Shown here one piece after another: positions 14,355-33,461 of a stretch of DNA of 33,461 nt (its first letter is position 1; each line of letters opens with the position of its first letter). Made by a program: the position numbers and the translations under genes. Source of the DNA: Nannochloropsis salina CCMP1776 (taxonomy: Eukaryota; Sar; Eustigmatophyceae; Eustigmatales; Monodopsidaceae); contig SDOX01000113.1 in the NCBI GenBank assembly GCA_004565275.1, positions 971 to 34,431 on the forward strand, written 5' to 3'. The notes under the pieces were generated by a model that was not told the DNA's origin, did not search any database, and saw nothing but the letters and a program-made list of their open reading frames with translations.

Positions 14355-14748
14355 CTACCCCTCCGCCATCATTTCTCTCGCGTATGCGAAGGCTCCCACC
14401 AGGCCTCCCAGCTGCAATTTTTCGCTCGCCCCGGATGCTAGATGATACTCGATGTCCGCCAGGGAGGAATAAATGTGGCCCAGCACCTGAGGGAGGGAGG
14501 GAGGGAGGGAGGGAGGGAGGGAGGGAGGGAGGGAGGGGGAGGACGCGTCATGGTTCTGCTCTCTTGTTCCCTCGTGCTTTGAATGGTTGTTTTATATATG
14601 ACCAATTTCACTTCCATCTCTCTGACTTTCTCTCTCTCTCTTTCTCTTTAGATTATATAAATACATACACACATCCACCTATCTTCCTATCTATCCATCT
14701 GTCTACCTATCTACCTATCTATCTACCTATCTATCTATCTATCCATCC

Positions 14749-14795
<47 letters not shown>

Positions 14796-17470
14796 CATCT
14801 ATCTCTCTATGTATATGTATATAAAATCATACTCACCCGCACCACACCCCCATTCGGCGAAGATCAGCCTCAAAATCCAAGCGTCGGACAATACTTAAGG
14901 CGACTGCATCCGGATGGGCGGAGACTTGATGAGGAGGGAGGAGGATGGTGTCCGTGCCCTGAGAGAGGAAGGAAGGAAGGGAGGGAGGGAGGGAAGGAGG
15001 GAGGGAGGGAGGGAGGAAGGGATGCCCTCAGTCATGCGGATGGGGGGCAGGAAGGGAGGAAGGAAAGAAGGAAACGAGGGAGGAGAGAAGAAGGGAGGAA
15101 AAGAGGGGAGGGAAAAGAAAGGAGGACAAAGAGGGGGGAGGGAAGGAGGGGGGGAGAAAGAAAGGGAAGGAAGGAGGGAAGGAGGGAAGGAAGGAAGGAG
15201 GGAAGGAGGGAGGGGAGGAGGGGTGGACACATGGCTCCATGAAGGGAAGGGGGGCGGATGGGCCAGACGGACTGGCGGCAAGGGCCTCCACAGTGGGAGA
15301 GAAAGTAGCGAATACAGGGGAGATACGAAAGGAACGCCACGAGAGAAAGAATGACATACTGAAGAGAAACGCGCGACGACACATCCTTTGGCCGGAAACG
15401 AGGACTGGGAATAACAGGAAGGGAGGAAGTGAGGGAGGGCGGGAGGGCGGGAGGGAGGGAGGGAGGGAGGGAGGGAGGGAGGGAGAGAGGGGTACCTTGA
15501 AGGAATCGTGAAGGAGGGACTCAATTATCGCATCTACGTCCTTGGGAAGAGGGTTCCCCGTCGAGAGGTAGATCGCCTCCTCCGAGATACCGTCCTTGTA
15601 GGCCATGGCGGTGGCCTGGAGGGAGGGAGGGTGAGAGGGAGGGAGGGAGGGAGGGAGGGAGGGAGGGAGGGTGAGAGGGCCGGGAAAAAAGATGTCGCAG
15701 GAGGAAGGACGCACCTGCATCACGTTCAGGACACGGCGCATGTCCCCTTGTCCCAACCGAACCAACGCCCGCACAGCCGTTTCATCCAACGTCAGGCCCT
15801 CCGTAACGGCTACGTGATGGATACGGCCTTCAACTTGTAGAGGGGCCAAGGGCGCGAACCGGAAACGGGTGCAACGGGATTGCAGGGCGGGGATAATTTT
15901 AGAGACGTAGTTGCATATGAGACAGAAGCTGTGGCGGGTGGGGAGAGAGGGAGGGAGGGAAGGAGGGAGGAAGGGAGGGGGGGAGGGGGGGAGGGTCGAG
16001 GCGATAGACGATAATTTCCGTGAGCGGGCGGGAGGAGGGAAGGGAGCGATCGAGGGAGAAGAGGGAAAGAGGGAGCACGAGCGGAAAGATTTGACCGCTT
16101 GTCCCACGAAAGGAGGCGTCGAAAGAAAGTAAAAGGAGGAAAGGGAGGGAGGGAGGGAGGGAGGGAGGGAGGGAGGACCGAGAGGTTGAAGGAACATGAG
16201 TGGAGGGCACAGAGTCAGAGTGAGAGAGAGGAAAGGTGGGAGAGGGAGGGTGTAAAGGAAGGAAGGGAGGCAGGGGCAGAGGGAGGGAGGGAAGGAGGGC
16301 GGGGAGGTGGGCACCTGAACAAACGCTTGGTGGCCGCGAACTCTTTGATCTGTTGACGCACCACGTCAATGCCTCTCTCGTCCGAAGCATTCAGCTCCAA
16401 TGTCATGGCCCCATATTTGCTCGCGCCGTACATCTGCTTGGCGCAGGCGAGGATGGTGGAGGTTTTGCCTGGGGGGAGGAGGGAGGGAGGGGAGGGAGGG
16501 AGGGAGGGGAGGGAGGGAGGGAGGGCAACGATGAGAGTTGCCGTGCCTGGTGAGGAAACCCGGTGACAGTGATGGAAAGCTACAGACTACAGACATACCG
16601 GAGAAGAGAAAAGAGAGCCAAGGATTAAAAAGAGGAGGGAAGGGAAGGAAGGAGGGGGGAGGGAGGGAGGGAGGGAGGGGAGCACGTACCGGTTCCAGGC
16701 GGGCCATAGAAAAGGAGGTGGGGCAGCTGGTTTTTTTCAATGAGACGCGTCACTGGTACGGGCATGCCACAGAGGAGGTGGAGAGGAGAGATGGGGGGGG
16801 GGAGGGGGAATGAAATGGAAGGGATGAGCGGGAGGAAGGGAGCTGAAAGGGAGGAGGGCGGAGAGGGACGGGGCGGTGGGAGGGATCCATCCAAACATGC
16901 AAAACGGCAGTGCATGCACGCTTCTGTGCCACCACAAGGGACGTGTGAAGCCAGGTGGAGAAAATGACACGTTCGAAATCAATTTGATGGGGAGGGAGGC
17001 GCGAGCTCGCACGGGACCTCGGGCACTGACGCCAAGACGAAGCAGCCTCCGTCATGGTGCCGACTTACGGATGGAGATAATCTCTTCATGGGCCACCAGG
17101 TCTTGTAGGGACCTGGGCCGGTATTTTTCAACCCAGGGCATGCTATTGAAGGCTTGATCGGGCGCGGCTGCAGGTTGGACGTGACGAATGTCTGGTGGGG
17201 CGTCTATTTTCTCTGTCTCGGTGCTGTATTGATGTGGATGGGAAAGGAGATCGGGGGCAGATGACGGGGATTTTACTGACAATGGTACGCGCATGCTCGA
17301 TCAAAGAAGAGATTAGTCCCAACCCAAACACTAAAAGAAACAAAAAATAAAGCACTTTTGTGGCCCAAAGACAGCTATGTTGAGGGGCTGAGGGAACAAC
17401 CTCAGGAGGAGGGCAAGGAGAAAGGGGACGCGATCTACCTGCTGGAAGCATCCATGTCCATGGATGTCAT
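14355..17470 (-). CDS. RFC5: Replication factor C subunit 5-like, Walker B exon not present
   Basis: Exons on the minus strand are 17470-17439, 17223-17069, 16752-16690, 16468-16315, 15928-15715, 15615-15496, 14958-14848 and 14486-14355. Phases close to 326 residues. The family loads the PCNA clamp. Seen are [13 protein letters not shown], Walker A GPPGTGKT (residues 79-86), [14 protein letters not shown], the sensor-1/SRC block [19 protein letters not shown] and GDMRRVLN; the last exon gives [27 protein letters not shown] and the C-terminus point to RFC5 (yeast Rfc3). The expected block of about 33 residues with LDEAD (Walker B) between KRLF and FCLICNYV is absent, although both flanking junctions are phase 2, so they join in frame. 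Exon 14958-14848 is the weakest and uses a poor donor (GGG|gtgtgg). A single-exon start at 17294 is an alternative N-terminus. Confidence 0.85.
14489..14540 (+). repeat. (GGGA)n tract at the last RFC5 acceptor
   Basis: About 12 GGGA units that, on the minus strand, form the polypyrimidine tract of the acceptor before the final RFC5 exon (starts at 14486). Confidence 0.9.
14677..14812 (+). repeat. (TATC)n tetranucleotide microsatellite
   Basis: About 135 bases of TATC/CTAT units with scattered CC or AC variants, within the last RFC5 intron. It is followed by a TATA-rich stretch. Likely length-polymorphic. Confidence 0.95.
14965..15220 (+). repeat. Long degenerate GGA/GAA/GGGA purine tract
   Basis: More than 250 bases almost free of pyrimidines on the plus strand, inside the RFC5 intron between exons ending at 15496 and starting at 14958. 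Further GGGA arrays inside RFC5 introns lie at about 15430-15488, 15618-15670, 15946-15992, 16140-16175, 16474-16523 and 16632-16680. Confidence 0.9.
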
Positions 17471-22441: not shown

Positions 22442-23423
22442 GGGTCTTCAGTGGATTGTGCACTATAGGTTATGCTTAGTCCTGAAAAAACATTTTCTGC
22501 ATTTATGTGACAGGCCTAGCATTTAATTATAAGCCTTCGAGAAGAAACCTTTCGGCGCAAAAGTGAAGGGAATGCCGTGCATCACTCGGGAAATGTGGGA
22601 GCAAATACACAAAGGAGAAAGGCTTCAATTTCCTTGAGCACAAGCAAGGGGAGCATAGAAAACCACTTTGCACAACAGGCATCGACATAGGTGCGAGAAG
22701 CACAGGTGCGAGAGGCATCGAAAGCAATTGGAGCTACCTTTGAAAGAATGCTGTCGTAATCTCGTTTTTGACCCCTGGGTATATATTACAAATTCCGATG
22801 CGTGCAGCCCCTCTCCGGGACCTCCTTTCTTCTTCCTTTCCCTCTTTGGGATCTGTATTTTCAGTCCCCCGAGTGATACAAAGTAACTTAAATCTGTACC
22901 TTAAGAATCATCGTTCCTGCCTGGAAAGCTTCGTACTGTCATACAGTTGCGTTATGACAAATAACAACGAAAGAAATGGCCACAATACGCTTTCCAGGGA
23001 CCATGGAAAAGTTCAACAAAAGTTTGAAATTATTCCCGGCAACGGTTGGAACATTCACAGTCCTAGTGGATTTCAAAAAAAAATATTTGACGACGAACAA
23101 CGCCTTGAAAAGGTCCTGGTATACTCTGCAAACGTGTCATCTTACTGCTTTTTCACAAGCCGCACGAATTGGAGGGAAGCGCGGAGACTGAAGGCGGTGT
23201 ATGCACGGGATATTCCTTTTGAAATCATCTGACTTAGATCCGTCGTGCTAGAGATATACACGCGTATACCTACAATCGTCCCCACATTATACCATATAAC
23301 GGTCAGATTATTTGACGTATTTTCACAGACAACGTGGTAGACTGACGTTCTTGCCTTTCCCTGCTCCTCACAACAAAAAGGGCAACGGAAGAATCATCGC
23401 TTCCATCCCCTAACCCGTGTGCC
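22442..23423. other. Intergenic region upstream of SulP
   Basis: About 980 bases, AT-richer than the flanking exons. Small frames occur (for example an ATG frame at 22976-23191, 71 codons) but none has a recognisable domain. The region just before 23424 presumably holds the SulP promoter. No second relic block was recognised here. Confidence 0.5.
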
Positions 23424-26400
23424 ATGGCCTCAACACGAGGCGATGGCTTTGACCCTAAGGAGAATAACTCCTCGCAAATGCCGCCCTTGCGCGGCTTTCG
23501 TTCCACTTCTTCCCTTGCCGACTCCCCTCAGCCTCATCTGGAACCAAAAAGTACTTCGACAAACTTCTCGGGAAGACGTGCGACGCCGTCATCTCCGCGT
23601 CCACCGGAACGTCCCCTGGGACGTCCTGCGTCTCTTTCGTCGTCAGTGGACGATCTAGATCACATCGATTTGCAAATCCTCACCTCTACGCTTTCCCCGA
23701 CGGCCAATGCCCTGCCCCGAAACCCGTCGCATCGCTTGAAGCGCATCGATAGTGCGGCTTTGGCCACGCCCTACGGTCCCGAGCTACCTATGAACCTTGC
23801 AAGAGCCCCTTACTCCGACAGAATGAAATACAACTACACTTTCATCCCTTCCATAGGGCAGACTTGGCGTAAACTCGCCCAAGAACTCAAATCGCGGTTG
23901 CACATTCCGTACCTCCCCTGGTGGGGTTTGAGGGGCCGGGACTACTTCGTTCATGAAGTGTGGCACGACGCCATGGCCGGCTTGACCTGCGCCTTGCTTG
24001 CAATTCCTGAGTCCCTCTCCTACATGATCTTGGCCTCCCTCGCCCCCGTGGTGGGTCTTCACACTGCGGCCATTCCCCCATTTGCCTACGCTTTATTGGG
24101 TACGAGCCCGCACACCTCCGTGGGGCCCATTTCCCTGGTATCGCTCTACCTCCCGTCTGTCTTCGTTGCCCTGGGCTTGAAAATCGACGATTACTCGGCA
24201 GCGGCGCACAAAGCGCGGCAGGAAGCGGGCTCGGTGGTGGCGATTTATGTGTGTTGTCTGTTTGGGGTCATGTCTCTCTTGCGGCTGGGGGGGCTGATCC
24301 GCTTCCTCTCTCACACGGTCATGACGGGTTTCATCTGTGCTTCCGGTGTGTATGTCTCCATCAAAGGTGAGGACGGGCAGGGGGAGAGAGTGGAACAGAG
24401 GATAGGAAGAGGCGACGAGGGGAAGGAGCAGTAAACGGCAGAAAATCCTAGCCGTTCTTCGAGAACATTAGGCCCACCCAATCTAGTTGACCTGTGTTCA
24501 TTTATCTCTTTCGCCCTTCTTGTAGAGCTTCGGCATATCCTGCACGTGCCCCCGCCCAAGGAGGCCTTCCAATACAACTACCAGGTCCTGGTCTGGATCG
24601 TCCGAAGCTTCCCCCGGGCAGACCCACGGACCTTGGCCTTGGGCGGGGCGTCACTTTTAAGCCTATTGACGATCAAATTCCTCAAACGCCGATTTCCTGC
24701 CACGCCCGAACGCCTGCGTTCCCGGGCGTTTTACTGCTGGTATTACTTGTCCTCCTTCTCGACCCCTATCGTCATCTTCATCGGGACCTTGATCTCCAAA
24801 TCCTTGGCCGTGCACGGGCACGCCGTTCCAGTCTTGGGAAGTTTTCCATCAGGTCTTGCCATTCCCTCTTTCCCCCCCGTGGCCCGTTTCCCCCCCAGTG
24901 ACTTGATCAAGCAGGCCTTGCCCATCGCTCTCCTGGCCTACGTGGAAGCCGTCTCCATCGCCAAGAGATATTCCGCCCTGTTTGGCTACAAATTGGACTT
25001 GAACCAGGACATGGCAAGTTACTCCCTGGCCAACCTATTGTCGGCTTTGTGGGGAGGCGTGACGCCCTCTGGGTCCTTTGCCCGAACGGCCTTGCAGGCC
25101 GAAGTGGGTTCCCGGTCCAGTTGGGCCAATATTTTCACGGGAACCTTCGTGATTGTTTGCTTGTACCAAACGCACATATTGCACGACGTACCGTATTGCG
25201 TGTTGGGTGCGCTGGTCGTCTCCGCCATGGTGAATTTGATCAATTTCCGAGAATTTTACCATGCCCTGCGGATCGCACGCATGTCGGGCTTGGTCATGGT
25301 CTTCACATTCCTCGTGACACTGTTGTGGAGCGTCGAGCATGGCTTGTTCTACGGCATTGTCGCTTCGCTGGCTTTGCTCCTGAGTCAGCTGTCGGACGTG
25401 GTGAGAAGAGGCAGACTGGAATGGAAAGAGGGTCGATGGCCGGACGGAAAGAAGGGGTAGAGGGTTCGGGTTTAGTGGGTGTCTTTCCCATTCATATGCC
25501 CTCTCTCACTTCTTTAGTGGTAGTGTTTCTCGTTCATATGCCACCCTCGCTTATCTGTCGCCCCTTGTCTCCGGGTATCATCAGGACACGGTCATCCTGG
25601 GCGAAGAACCCCCTCGGGTGGACGCCAGCGGGAAGCGCGTCGCCGCCCACTACCCGCACTTGGTCTCCCTCCGCGACAACCCCCGGGCCCTGCCCTGCAA
25701 TGGGGGCCATGGCATTATCGTCCTCCGCCCCGTAGCCAGCCTTTTTTTTGGGAACGCGGAGCTTTTGGTGTCGATGATGGAGAAGCTTCTGGAAAACGAA
25801 AAGGGCGATGCCCGGAGCCGCGTCGCGGGGACGCCGCTCGCCACGGCCGAAGCGCTGGAGCAGGAATCTCCGAGTCAAGGACCCTCCCAAGAAGAAGATA
25901 CGTGCATCCCCAAACCCCAGCACCAGGCCCAAGACGAACTCGAAGCTCAAACCAAAAGCAATGGCACCACGGGCGGTGCGCCGCCGGCCTTGGTCCCAGG
26001 TACGTCGTGAGAGCAAGTGAGGGAGGGTACCATTCCCATCAGAAGACAATTTTCTTTCCTATCGTCCTGTTCCAGAGCTACATCGTTGTTTGCGCGTTCT
26101 TCCTCTGCGCACGTCGCACTTGCCACCTGTACGATGGCATGTCTCTTTCACTGCAGCACCACCGTAGCTTCATTCCTGATAACGAATACCTTTCCTTTCT
26201 CCCCTCTTCCCCCCCCCCCCCCGGCATATACCATCTTCTTCATATTCTCTCTCGTTCAGGAAAACTCCGTTTCCTCCTTCTCGACGTAAGCGGCATCCGC
26301 CTGCTGGACCTGCCTGCCCTGGCTGCTTTGGGGGAGATCGTGGACGTGTCCGCCGCCGCGGGCGTCGCCGTCATTCTCTCCAATGGTACCCGGAACATGA

Positions 26401-26663
26401 AGCGCTCCCTGAAAGCTTGCGGTCTCTGGGAGCAGGTTGGTGGTCCGTTGGTCATGCACAGCACCGAAGAGGTCTTTGCCCTCCTCTGTGAGGCGCCCAT
26501 GCTGGTGCCCAAATATTCGCAGGAAGCTTCCTCCTTCCAGCTCTCAGAGAACCGGGGTGTGGAAGAGGAAGGCGCGGAAATGACCGGCTTGGAGGGGCTG
26601 GGGAAGGTCACGGTGGAGGGAAGGGAAAGGAAGGGGAAAGGAAGGGGGGGGAGTTCCAAATAG
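23424..26663 (+). CDS. SulP family sulfate-type anion transporter with STAS domain
   Basis: Four exons, 23424-24366, 24526-25400, 25585-25999 and 26260-26663, close in phase to 878 residues. The ATG at 23424 gives MASTRGDGFDPKEN and a long Ser/Pro-rich cytosolic N-terminus. The transporter domain follows: GLTCALLAIPESLSYMILAS, then GLHTAAIPPFAYALLGTSPH and SVGPISLVSLYLPS, which together are the SulP signature region, then further helices (PIALLAYVEAVSIAKRYSAL, GVTPSGSFARTALQAEVGSR). The C-terminal STAS domain spans exons 3 and 4 (HGIIVLRPVASLFFGNAELL; LRFLLLDVSGIRLLDLPALA), with an acidic low-complexity insert of about 70 residues between them. SulP proteins move sulfate, bicarbonate or related anions across membranes, and the STAS domain regulates them. 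Substrate and membrane cannot be told from sequence. A possible polyadenylation signal AATAAA lies at 26772. Confidence 0.9.
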
Positions 26664-33427: not shown

Positions 33428-33461
33428 GTGAGGGAGGGAGGGAGGGAGGGAGGGAGGGGCG

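What the first reader, a model, noticed from the sequence alone, without database searches (positions are those of the whole stretch)
15929..16314. RFC5 lacks the exon that should carry Walker B, yet the flanking exons join in frame
RFC small subunits need an LDEAD Walker B block of about 33 residues between the NASDERGID...KRLF segment and the FCLICNYV...SRC segment. Neither strand of the 386-base gap between these exons encodes it in any frame I could read; the only non-repetitive part (about 15996-16134) does not resemble it. The donor at 16315 leaves two bases of a codon and the acceptor at 15928 supplies the third, so the missing exon would be phase-symmetric and its loss keeps the frame ([13 protein letters not shown]). 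Either the assembly collapsed two introns between GGGA arrays and lost the exon, or the genome truly lost it and this copy cannot hydrolyse ATP normally.
Basis: partly seen in the sequence, partly recalled or inferred. Interest (0 to 1): 0.75.

Follow-up and report, generated by a model that had tools for sequence, protein, structure and literature searches.

The report
RFC5 exon lost in genome assembly
A vital DNA-replication gene of a marine alga seems to lack the exon for its ATP-splitting motif, most likely because the short-read assembly skipped over that exon at a simple repeat, so this is probably an artefact and not new biology.

Summary
The window carries the only RFC5 gene (human RFC5 / yeast Rfc3 type) found in its 26.5 Mb assembly, on the minus strand. 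The rest of the gene splices in frame (339 aa, no internal stop), but the Walker B block (human residues 116-150) is replaced by one serine. The 386-base gap holds no trace of it: alignment scores (15-17) equal shuffles (means 15.4, 16.0), while the RFC2 and RFC4 exons of the same genome score 81-88. The gap has only two AG dinucleotides, so no in-phase GT-AG exon fits. No third exact LDEADxMT motif exists in the assembly.

The genome is almost certainly Microchloropsis (Nannochloropsis) salina CCMP1776: one scaffold has the length published as the N50 of that 454/Illumina assembly (828,788), and the spliced leader equals that of M. gaditana. Three of 6 assembly-gap edges seen, including both ends of this window, lie within 22 bases of GGGA arrays. 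Intron 3 holds one internal 35-bp array where the exon's flanking arrays could have fused. RFC subunits are essential in yeast and Arabidopsis.

Best explanation: an assembly collapse deleted about 102 coding bases plus flanking intron. True loss is very unlikely. Raw reads, not available here, would settle it.

The parts
17069..17294 (-). RFC5 exon 1 (N-terminus to [22 protein letters not shown]); start codon inferred as first in-frame ATG
   Evidence: alignment to human RFC5; donor GTAAGT
16690..16752 (-). RFC5 exon 2 ([21 protein letters not shown], first part of Walker A)
16315..16468 (-). RFC5 exon 3 ([10 protein letters not shown]...[25 protein letters not shown])
15929..16314 (-). merged intron where the Walker B exon (expected about 102 nt, phase 2 on both sides) should lie; block absent on both strands
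16142..16176 (.). 35-bp perfect GGGA array, internal to the merged intron; proposed fusion point of the arrays that flanked the lost exon
   Evidence: array; fusion is inference
15941..15995 (.). GGGA array near the acceptor of the merged intron
15996..16141 (.). intronic stretch between the two arrays, found at one place in the assembly
15715..15928 (-). RFC5 exon after the gap ([24 protein letters not shown]...[11 protein letters not shown]; sensor 1 and SRC)
15496..15615 (-). RFC5 exon ([40 protein letters not shown]), with 37-bp perfect GGGA arrays 10 and 19 bases away on its two sides
14848..14958 (-). RFC5 exon (GTDTILL...[13 protein letters not shown]), divergent part of the collar
   Evidence: frame and splice sites; alignment with a slightly longer version of this exon
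14355..14486 (-). RFC5 last exon ([43 protein letters not shown])
33430..33458 (.). GGGA array 3 bases before the window's last base; the scaffold continues with N immediately after the window

Best explanation
The algal genome has an ordinary RFC5 gene with an intact Walker B exon of about 102 nt between window positions 15929 and 16314. That exon was flanked on both sides by intronic GGGA/TCCC arrays. The 454 plus Illumina assembly (shredded Newbler and Velvet contigs merged by Phrap, then Gap Resolution and Dupfinisher) joined the upstream array directly to the downstream one. It thereby deleted the exon and parts of both introns, leaving one merged intron with an internal 35-bp array at 16142-16176. 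The frame survives because the two original introns had the same phase (2). Shown: absence of the block, one gene copy in the held assembly, intact remainder, the assembly's data type (if the identification is right), and gaps at GGGA arrays. Inferred: that the exon exists in the living genome, that arrays flanked it, and that the join happened in this array.
For: RFC5 found only here in G000. The Walker B blocks of RFC2 (C41) and RFC4 (C15) and the degenerate one of an RFC3-like gene (C2) are present; no third exact LDEADxMT motif in 26.5 Mb. Scaffold C86 is 828,788 bases, the N50 printed for N. salina CCMP1776, made from 454 and Illumina reads with Newbler, Velvet, Phrap, Gap Resolution and Dupfinisher (PMC6953503, whole text). 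Three of the 6 N-gap edges seen lie 0, 3 and 22 nt from a GGGA array (N confirmed right after the window); within 30 nt of an array lie 2.1% of 3000 random points, 1.5% of points in the sampled loci and 5.4% in the array-rich window itself. On C56 a Cpn60/TCP1-type exon stands about 245 bases beyond an N run that ends in such an array, with no other exon of that gene reported near it. In introns 2, 4, 5 and 6 the longest TCCC run lies 2-17 nt from a splice site; only in the merged intron is it far inside, 138 nt from the donor and 213 nt from the acceptor. Another exon of this gene (15496-15615) has a 37-bp perfect array on each side, so the geometry needed for a collapse occurs here. Spliced-leader hits: 12 here (possibly a lower bound) against 239 SL RNA candidate genes given for the long-read M. 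gaditana assembly (PMC8570151, passage). Missing exons were among the most frequent false losses in earlier vertebrate assemblies (PMC9516821, passages). RFC subunits are essential in yeast and Arabidopsis (PMC6018503, passages).
Against: No raw read, transcript or second assembly could be examined. The same assembly kept many exons split by introns, often next to GGGA arrays: the 7 strong MCM loci are continuous, 9 of 11 Cpn60 loci are continuous in the hit table, and the tenth (C15) has exons recognisable by eye in its array-rich introns. The collapse is thus a rare event, not the rule. There is no N at the site. Perfect GGGA/TCCC runs in the sample thin out smoothly with length (max 61 bp in 189 kb), so no cut-off by read length is visible. 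The gap-edge test has only 6 edges, two of them the ends of an array-rich window and one fetched because its gene looked truncated. The intron comparison has four introns. The SL comparison is between two species and two counting methods.
Confidence: 0.9

Rival explanations
1. True deletion in the strain or species: RFC5 has lost its Walker B exon and works, or fails, without it.
For: The assembled sequence is gap-free here and the frame is kept across the junction. The other exons look conserved. A clamp-loader subunit can tolerate a degenerate site: yeast Rfc5 carries D141N in its Walker B (PMC3740443, passage).
Against: The loss would remove 35 contiguous residues, not one. Walker B is present in 80 of 80 GTDB relatives fetched (78 by script, 2 by eye; mostly archaeal small subunits, the best 80 of 570 found). 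Changing only the Walker B Glu in the four active yeast subunits already affects clamp and DNA interactions (PMC3740443, abstract seen). RFC subunits are essential where tested (PMC6018503, passages). No second RFC5 copy in the held assembly.
Confidence: 0.03
2. This locus is a damaged or partial duplicate, and the working RFC5 lies in sequence not held here (N gaps, or the difference between the published 194 scaffolds/27.6 Mb and the 103 contigs/26.5 Mb searched).
For: About 1.1 Mb of the published assembly is not in the searched set, if the identification is right, and N runs occur in the scaffolds.
Against: The other exons and their splice sites are intact, with no stop or frameshift, which is not what decay gives; no stray RFC5-like exon was reported elsewhere.
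Confidence: 0.04
3. The exon is present in the gap but hidden (diverged, split into micro-exons, non-canonical splice sites, or on the other strand).
For: The spliced-alignment script forced a stretch of the gap (about 16010-16097) onto human residues 113-146; 9 AG..GT/GC intervals exist, three of them multiples of 3 with GC donors (15, 21 and 72 nt).
Against: That stretch has few identities and the block scores no better than shuffles on either strand. Only one internal AG exists, so an in-phase GT-AG exon is excluded. No six-frame translation of the gap resembles the block (read by eye).
Confidence: 0.02

Closest known systems
RFC5 (human) / Rfc3 (yeast), small subunit of the eukaryotic clamp loader
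   Same: Walker [18 protein letters not shown], sensor-1 FCLICNY, SRC box, GDMRR, ADIEY...KLQL collar; 48% identity to human RFC5 in the alignment, where yeast Rfc3 has 52%
   Different: Walker B block (human 116-150) absent in the assembled sequence; 52 residues before PWVEKYRP if the first ATG is used, against 20 in human
False exon loss in older genome assemblies (Vertebrate Genomes Project comparison, PMC9516821, passages)
   Same: Exons missing from earlier assemblies in GC- and repeat-rich sequence, so that important residues appear lost although the gene is intact
   Different: There shown by new assemblies of the same species; here inferred, because no second assembly or reads could be opened
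Simple-repeat-rich genomes of eustigmatophyte algae (Monodopsis and Vischeria, PMC8570151, passages)
   Same: Dense simple repeats
   Different: That paper stresses Monodopsis and Vischeria; here the arrays are in Microchloropsis introns next to splice sites

Membership tests
RFC small subunit, RFC5/Rfc3 clade | best match is human RFC5 / yeast Rfc3 rather than RFC2, RFC3 or RFC4 | tested here: met
   PDB search ranks human RFC5 chains first (219.6 bits), yeast Rfc3 next (195.6), human RFC4 162.5, human RFC2 118.6, human RFC3 61.6; RFC2, RFC4 and an RFC3-like gene are separate loci
RFC small subunit, RFC5/Rfc3 clade | Walker A GxxGxGKT | tested here: met
   GPPGTGKT across exons 2 and 3
RFC small subunit, RFC5/Rfc3 clade | Walker B hhhhDE (LDEAD) | tested here: not met
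   absent from the assembled locus; judged an assembly defect
RFC small subunit, RFC5/Rfc3 clade | sensor-1 Asn and SRC arginine finger | tested here: met
   [19 protein letters not shown]
RFC small subunit, RFC5/Rfc3 clade | incorporation in the RFC pentamer and clamp loading | not testable with these tools
   needs protein or genetics
assembly collapse at a tandem repeat | missing unique sequence bounded by similar repeat arrays | tested here: inconclusive
   an internal 35-bp array in the merged intron but the missing sequence itself is not in hand
assembly collapse at a tandem repeat | assembly built from reads too short for such arrays, with other failures at the same repeat type | tested here: met
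   454/Illumina assembly identified by its N50; 3 of 6 N edges within 22 nt of GGGA arrays against 1.5-5.4% of background points within 30 nt
assembly collapse at a tandem repeat | read depth or split reads at the join | not testable with these tools
   raw reads not available here

The most novel reading that the evidence does not exclude
The alga really has an RFC5 that lacks the whole Walker B strand and the following helix, so that its clamp loader runs with a non-ATPase, structurally reduced subunit in the RFC5 position.
Probability: 0.03. Interest if true: 0.8.

Novelty: not a real feature. Interest (0 to 1): 0.12.

Why it matters
If the loss were real it would overturn the expectation that an RFC5-position subunit keeps a complete AAA+ core. 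As an artefact it matters in a practical way: gene models and comparative studies built on this assembly would report a catalytically dead or shortened RFC5. Other genes with exons set between GGGA arrays may be silently shortened in frame, which neither an N-gap filter nor a stop-codon filter would catch.

Tried and rejected
A second missing RFC5 segment (between LLHDSFK and VHRVDF) was suspected. It was withdrawn: the exon 14848-14958 joins in phase 0 on both sides and the length fits (alignment, made with four extra residues at the end of that exon; final splicing).

Hidden exon in the gap: rejected by alignment scores with shuffles and positive controls and by the lack of AG dinucleotides. 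The RFC3-like locus was meant as a third control but scored only 17, with no trace of its block; the slice was apparently taken beside the match or in the wrong orientation, so that row is void. Its block ILTEVDRLS is legible.

Exon elsewhere in the assembly: the LDEADxMT pattern with up to 2 mismatches gave 28 places; the 2 exact ones are RFC4 and RFC2. C45 (LDEADSML) is a DEAD-box helicase; the other 25 were not opened.

Related sequences: a degenerate pattern for FCLICNY followed by a variable residue pair and KIIP found nothing in GTDB or IMG/VR contigs, so no eukaryotic relative of this locus could be fetched. Walker B was found by script in 78 of 80 GTDB loci and by eye in the other 2. 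In IMG/VR it was found by script in 26 of 30; of the other 4, L155 and L157 read as other AAA proteins, L146 and L153 were not resolved.

Controls: the MCM search gave 25 rows. I counted 7 strong loci (C56, C15, C1, C55, C78, C57, C70), all continuous (C56 covers 21-208 of 224). I dropped 5 weak rows on four more contigs (C72, C86, C37, C103), taken as other AAA proteins without opening them; the rows on C72, C86 and C103 were marked as over the family's cut-off. Cpn60 search: 11 loci, 9 continuous (two of them with one stop inside a matched stretch), C15 lacking positions 78-355 in the table but with exons recognisable by eye in the DNA, C56 with one exon beyond an N run.

Pfam on 20 window ORFs gave only a sulfate permease/STAS gene; on 5 frames of the RFC5 region it gave three lid-domain matches, all below their curated cut-offs. 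PF13177 on the whole genome did not report the window gene.

Full report
What is there. The window lies at G000:C8:971-34431 of a 26.5 Mb, 103-contig assembly of a eukaryote. On its minus strand, between 17294 and 14355, is an RFC5 gene (human RFC5, yeast Rfc3). PDB chains of RFC5 rank first in a sequence search with the joined exons, ahead of RFC4, RFC2 and RFC3. Seven exons splice with GT-AG borders to a 1020-base reading frame, 339 residues and a stop, with no internal stop. Walker [25 protein letters not shown] and the collar motif ADIEY...KLQL are present. The Walker B block, human residues 116-150, is not: KRLF is followed by a single serine and then FCLICNYV.

Is the block hidden? No. 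A protein-to-DNA alignment that allows frameshifts gives 15-17 for the human and yeast blocks on either strand of the 386-base gap, the same as 60 shuffles per query (means 15.4 and 16.0, maxima 25 and 23); the Walker B exons of RFC2 and RFC4 of the same genome give 81-88. The minus strand of the gap has two AG dinucleotides, of which one is the known acceptor; the three AG..GT intervals that remain are 2, 19 and 88 bases, none of which keeps the frame, and three AG..GC intervals of 15, 21 and 72 bases would keep it but encode nothing like the block. A spliced-alignment script did force a poor stretch of the gap onto the block, which the score test shows to be no better than chance. My first suspicion of a second missing segment in the same gene was wrong.

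Is there another copy? The own-genome searches with the window protein, with human RFC5 and with the block find RFC2 on C41, RFC4 on C15, an RFC3-like gene on C2, and RFC5 only here (reading frames). The pattern LDEADxMT occurs without mismatch only in RFC4 and RFC2; with up to two mismatches there are 28 places, of which I opened one more, C45, a DEAD-box helicase. The stretch 15996-16141 was found at one place.

Whose genome and how was it made? The 12 spliced-leader hits carry the full 40-base M. gaditana leader, one of them with a single-base change (leader sequence from a passage of PMC8570151). Scaffold C86 is 828,788 bases long, exactly the N50 printed for the N. salina CCMP1776 assembly (PMC6953503, whole text). 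That assembly used 454 and Illumina reads, Newbler, Velvet and Phrap, with Gap Resolution and Dupfinisher; it is published as 27.6 Mb in 194 scaffolds, so about 1.1 Mb is not in the set searched here. The identification rests on that number and on the leader; no accession was shown to me.

Why an assembly collapse. (1) N gaps in this assembly favour GGGA arrays: of the 6 gap edges seen, 3 lie 0, 3 and 22 bases from an array. Within 30 bases of an array lie 2.1% of 3000 random points, 1.5% of points in the sampled loci and 5.4% of points in this array-rich window. Two of the three edges are the ends of the window itself (N confirmed right after its last base). The third, fetched because its gene looked truncated, stands on C56 about 245 bases before a lone Cpn60/TCP1-type exon. 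Of the other three edges, one has its nearest array 178 bases away and two have none within 3 kb. (2) In introns 2, 4, 5 and 6 the longest TCCC run lies 2-17 bases from a splice site, and one exon (15496-15615) has a 37-bp perfect array on each side. The longest run of the merged intron alone is internal, 138 bases from the donor and 213 from the acceptor. This is what a fusion of the two arrays that flanked the missing exon would leave; the comparison has only four other introns, and intron 1 has no such run. (3) Spliced-leader repeats are few: 12 hits here (possibly a lower bound) against 239 SL RNA candidate genes given for the long-read assembly of the sister species (PMC8570151, passage); species and method differ. 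(4) False exon loss is a documented and frequent fault of older assemblies (PMC9516821, passages).

Why not a true loss. Yeast needs all five subunits and Arabidopsis rfc2, rfc3 and rfc5 mutants are seed-lethal (PMC6018503, passages). Changing the Walker B Glu alone in the four active yeast subunits affects clamp and DNA interactions as well as hydrolysis (PMC3740443, abstract and passages). In 80 of 80 GTDB relatives fetched the block is present (78 by script, 2 read by eye); these are mostly archaeal small subunits and the best 80 of 570 found. In IMG/VR loci the script found it in 26 of 30. That losing 35 contiguous residues of the AAA+ core would wreck the fold is inference from established knowledge; I did not model it.

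What speaks against collapse. The assembly handles most intron-split conserved genes well: the 7 strong MCM loci are continuous, down to matches of 17-18 profile positions (5 weak rows on four more contigs were not opened); Cpn60 9 of 11 continuous in the table, the tenth with exons recognisable by eye in an array-rich gene. There is no N at the site, the perfect arrays in 189 kb thin out smoothly with length, and no reads were available. So the event is uncommon in this assembly, but a few such joins among a genome's many array-bearing introns would be unremarkable (inference).

Verdict. A correct and careful observation of a probable artefact. Odds: collapse 0.9, true deletion 0.03, working second copy in unheld sequence 0.04, hidden exon 0.02.

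Noticed in passing
G000:C1:973398 (L030) and G000:C3:135945 minus (L031): Two repeats about 80% alike over 859 bases begin about 16 bases before a complete spliced-leader sequence that is not followed by a GT donor; downstream is a frame that looks (from memory, not tested) like a copia-type gag. A retroelement family may carry the spliced leader at its 5' end.
   Followed up: partly
window 14355-16752: The last TCCC run ends 2-17 bases before the acceptor in five of six RFC5 introns, so the arrays may double as polypyrimidine tracts.
   Followed up: partly
G000:C56:3189-3600 (L160): A lone Cpn60/TCP1-type exon follows an N run whose edge is a GGGA array.
   Followed up: partly
G000:C43:15815-18599 (L028): Seven spliced-leader copies in alternating orientation, same-strand copies about 920 bases apart, on a 24.6 kb contig.
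   Followed up: no
window 23346-26660 plus strand: Sulfate permease with a STAS domain, in three successive frames.
   Followed up: no
window as a whole: Perfect GGGA/TCCC runs of 12 or more are about four times denser in this window (13.5 per 10 kb) than in 189 kb sampled from the same assembly (3.2 per 10 kb).
   Followed up: no
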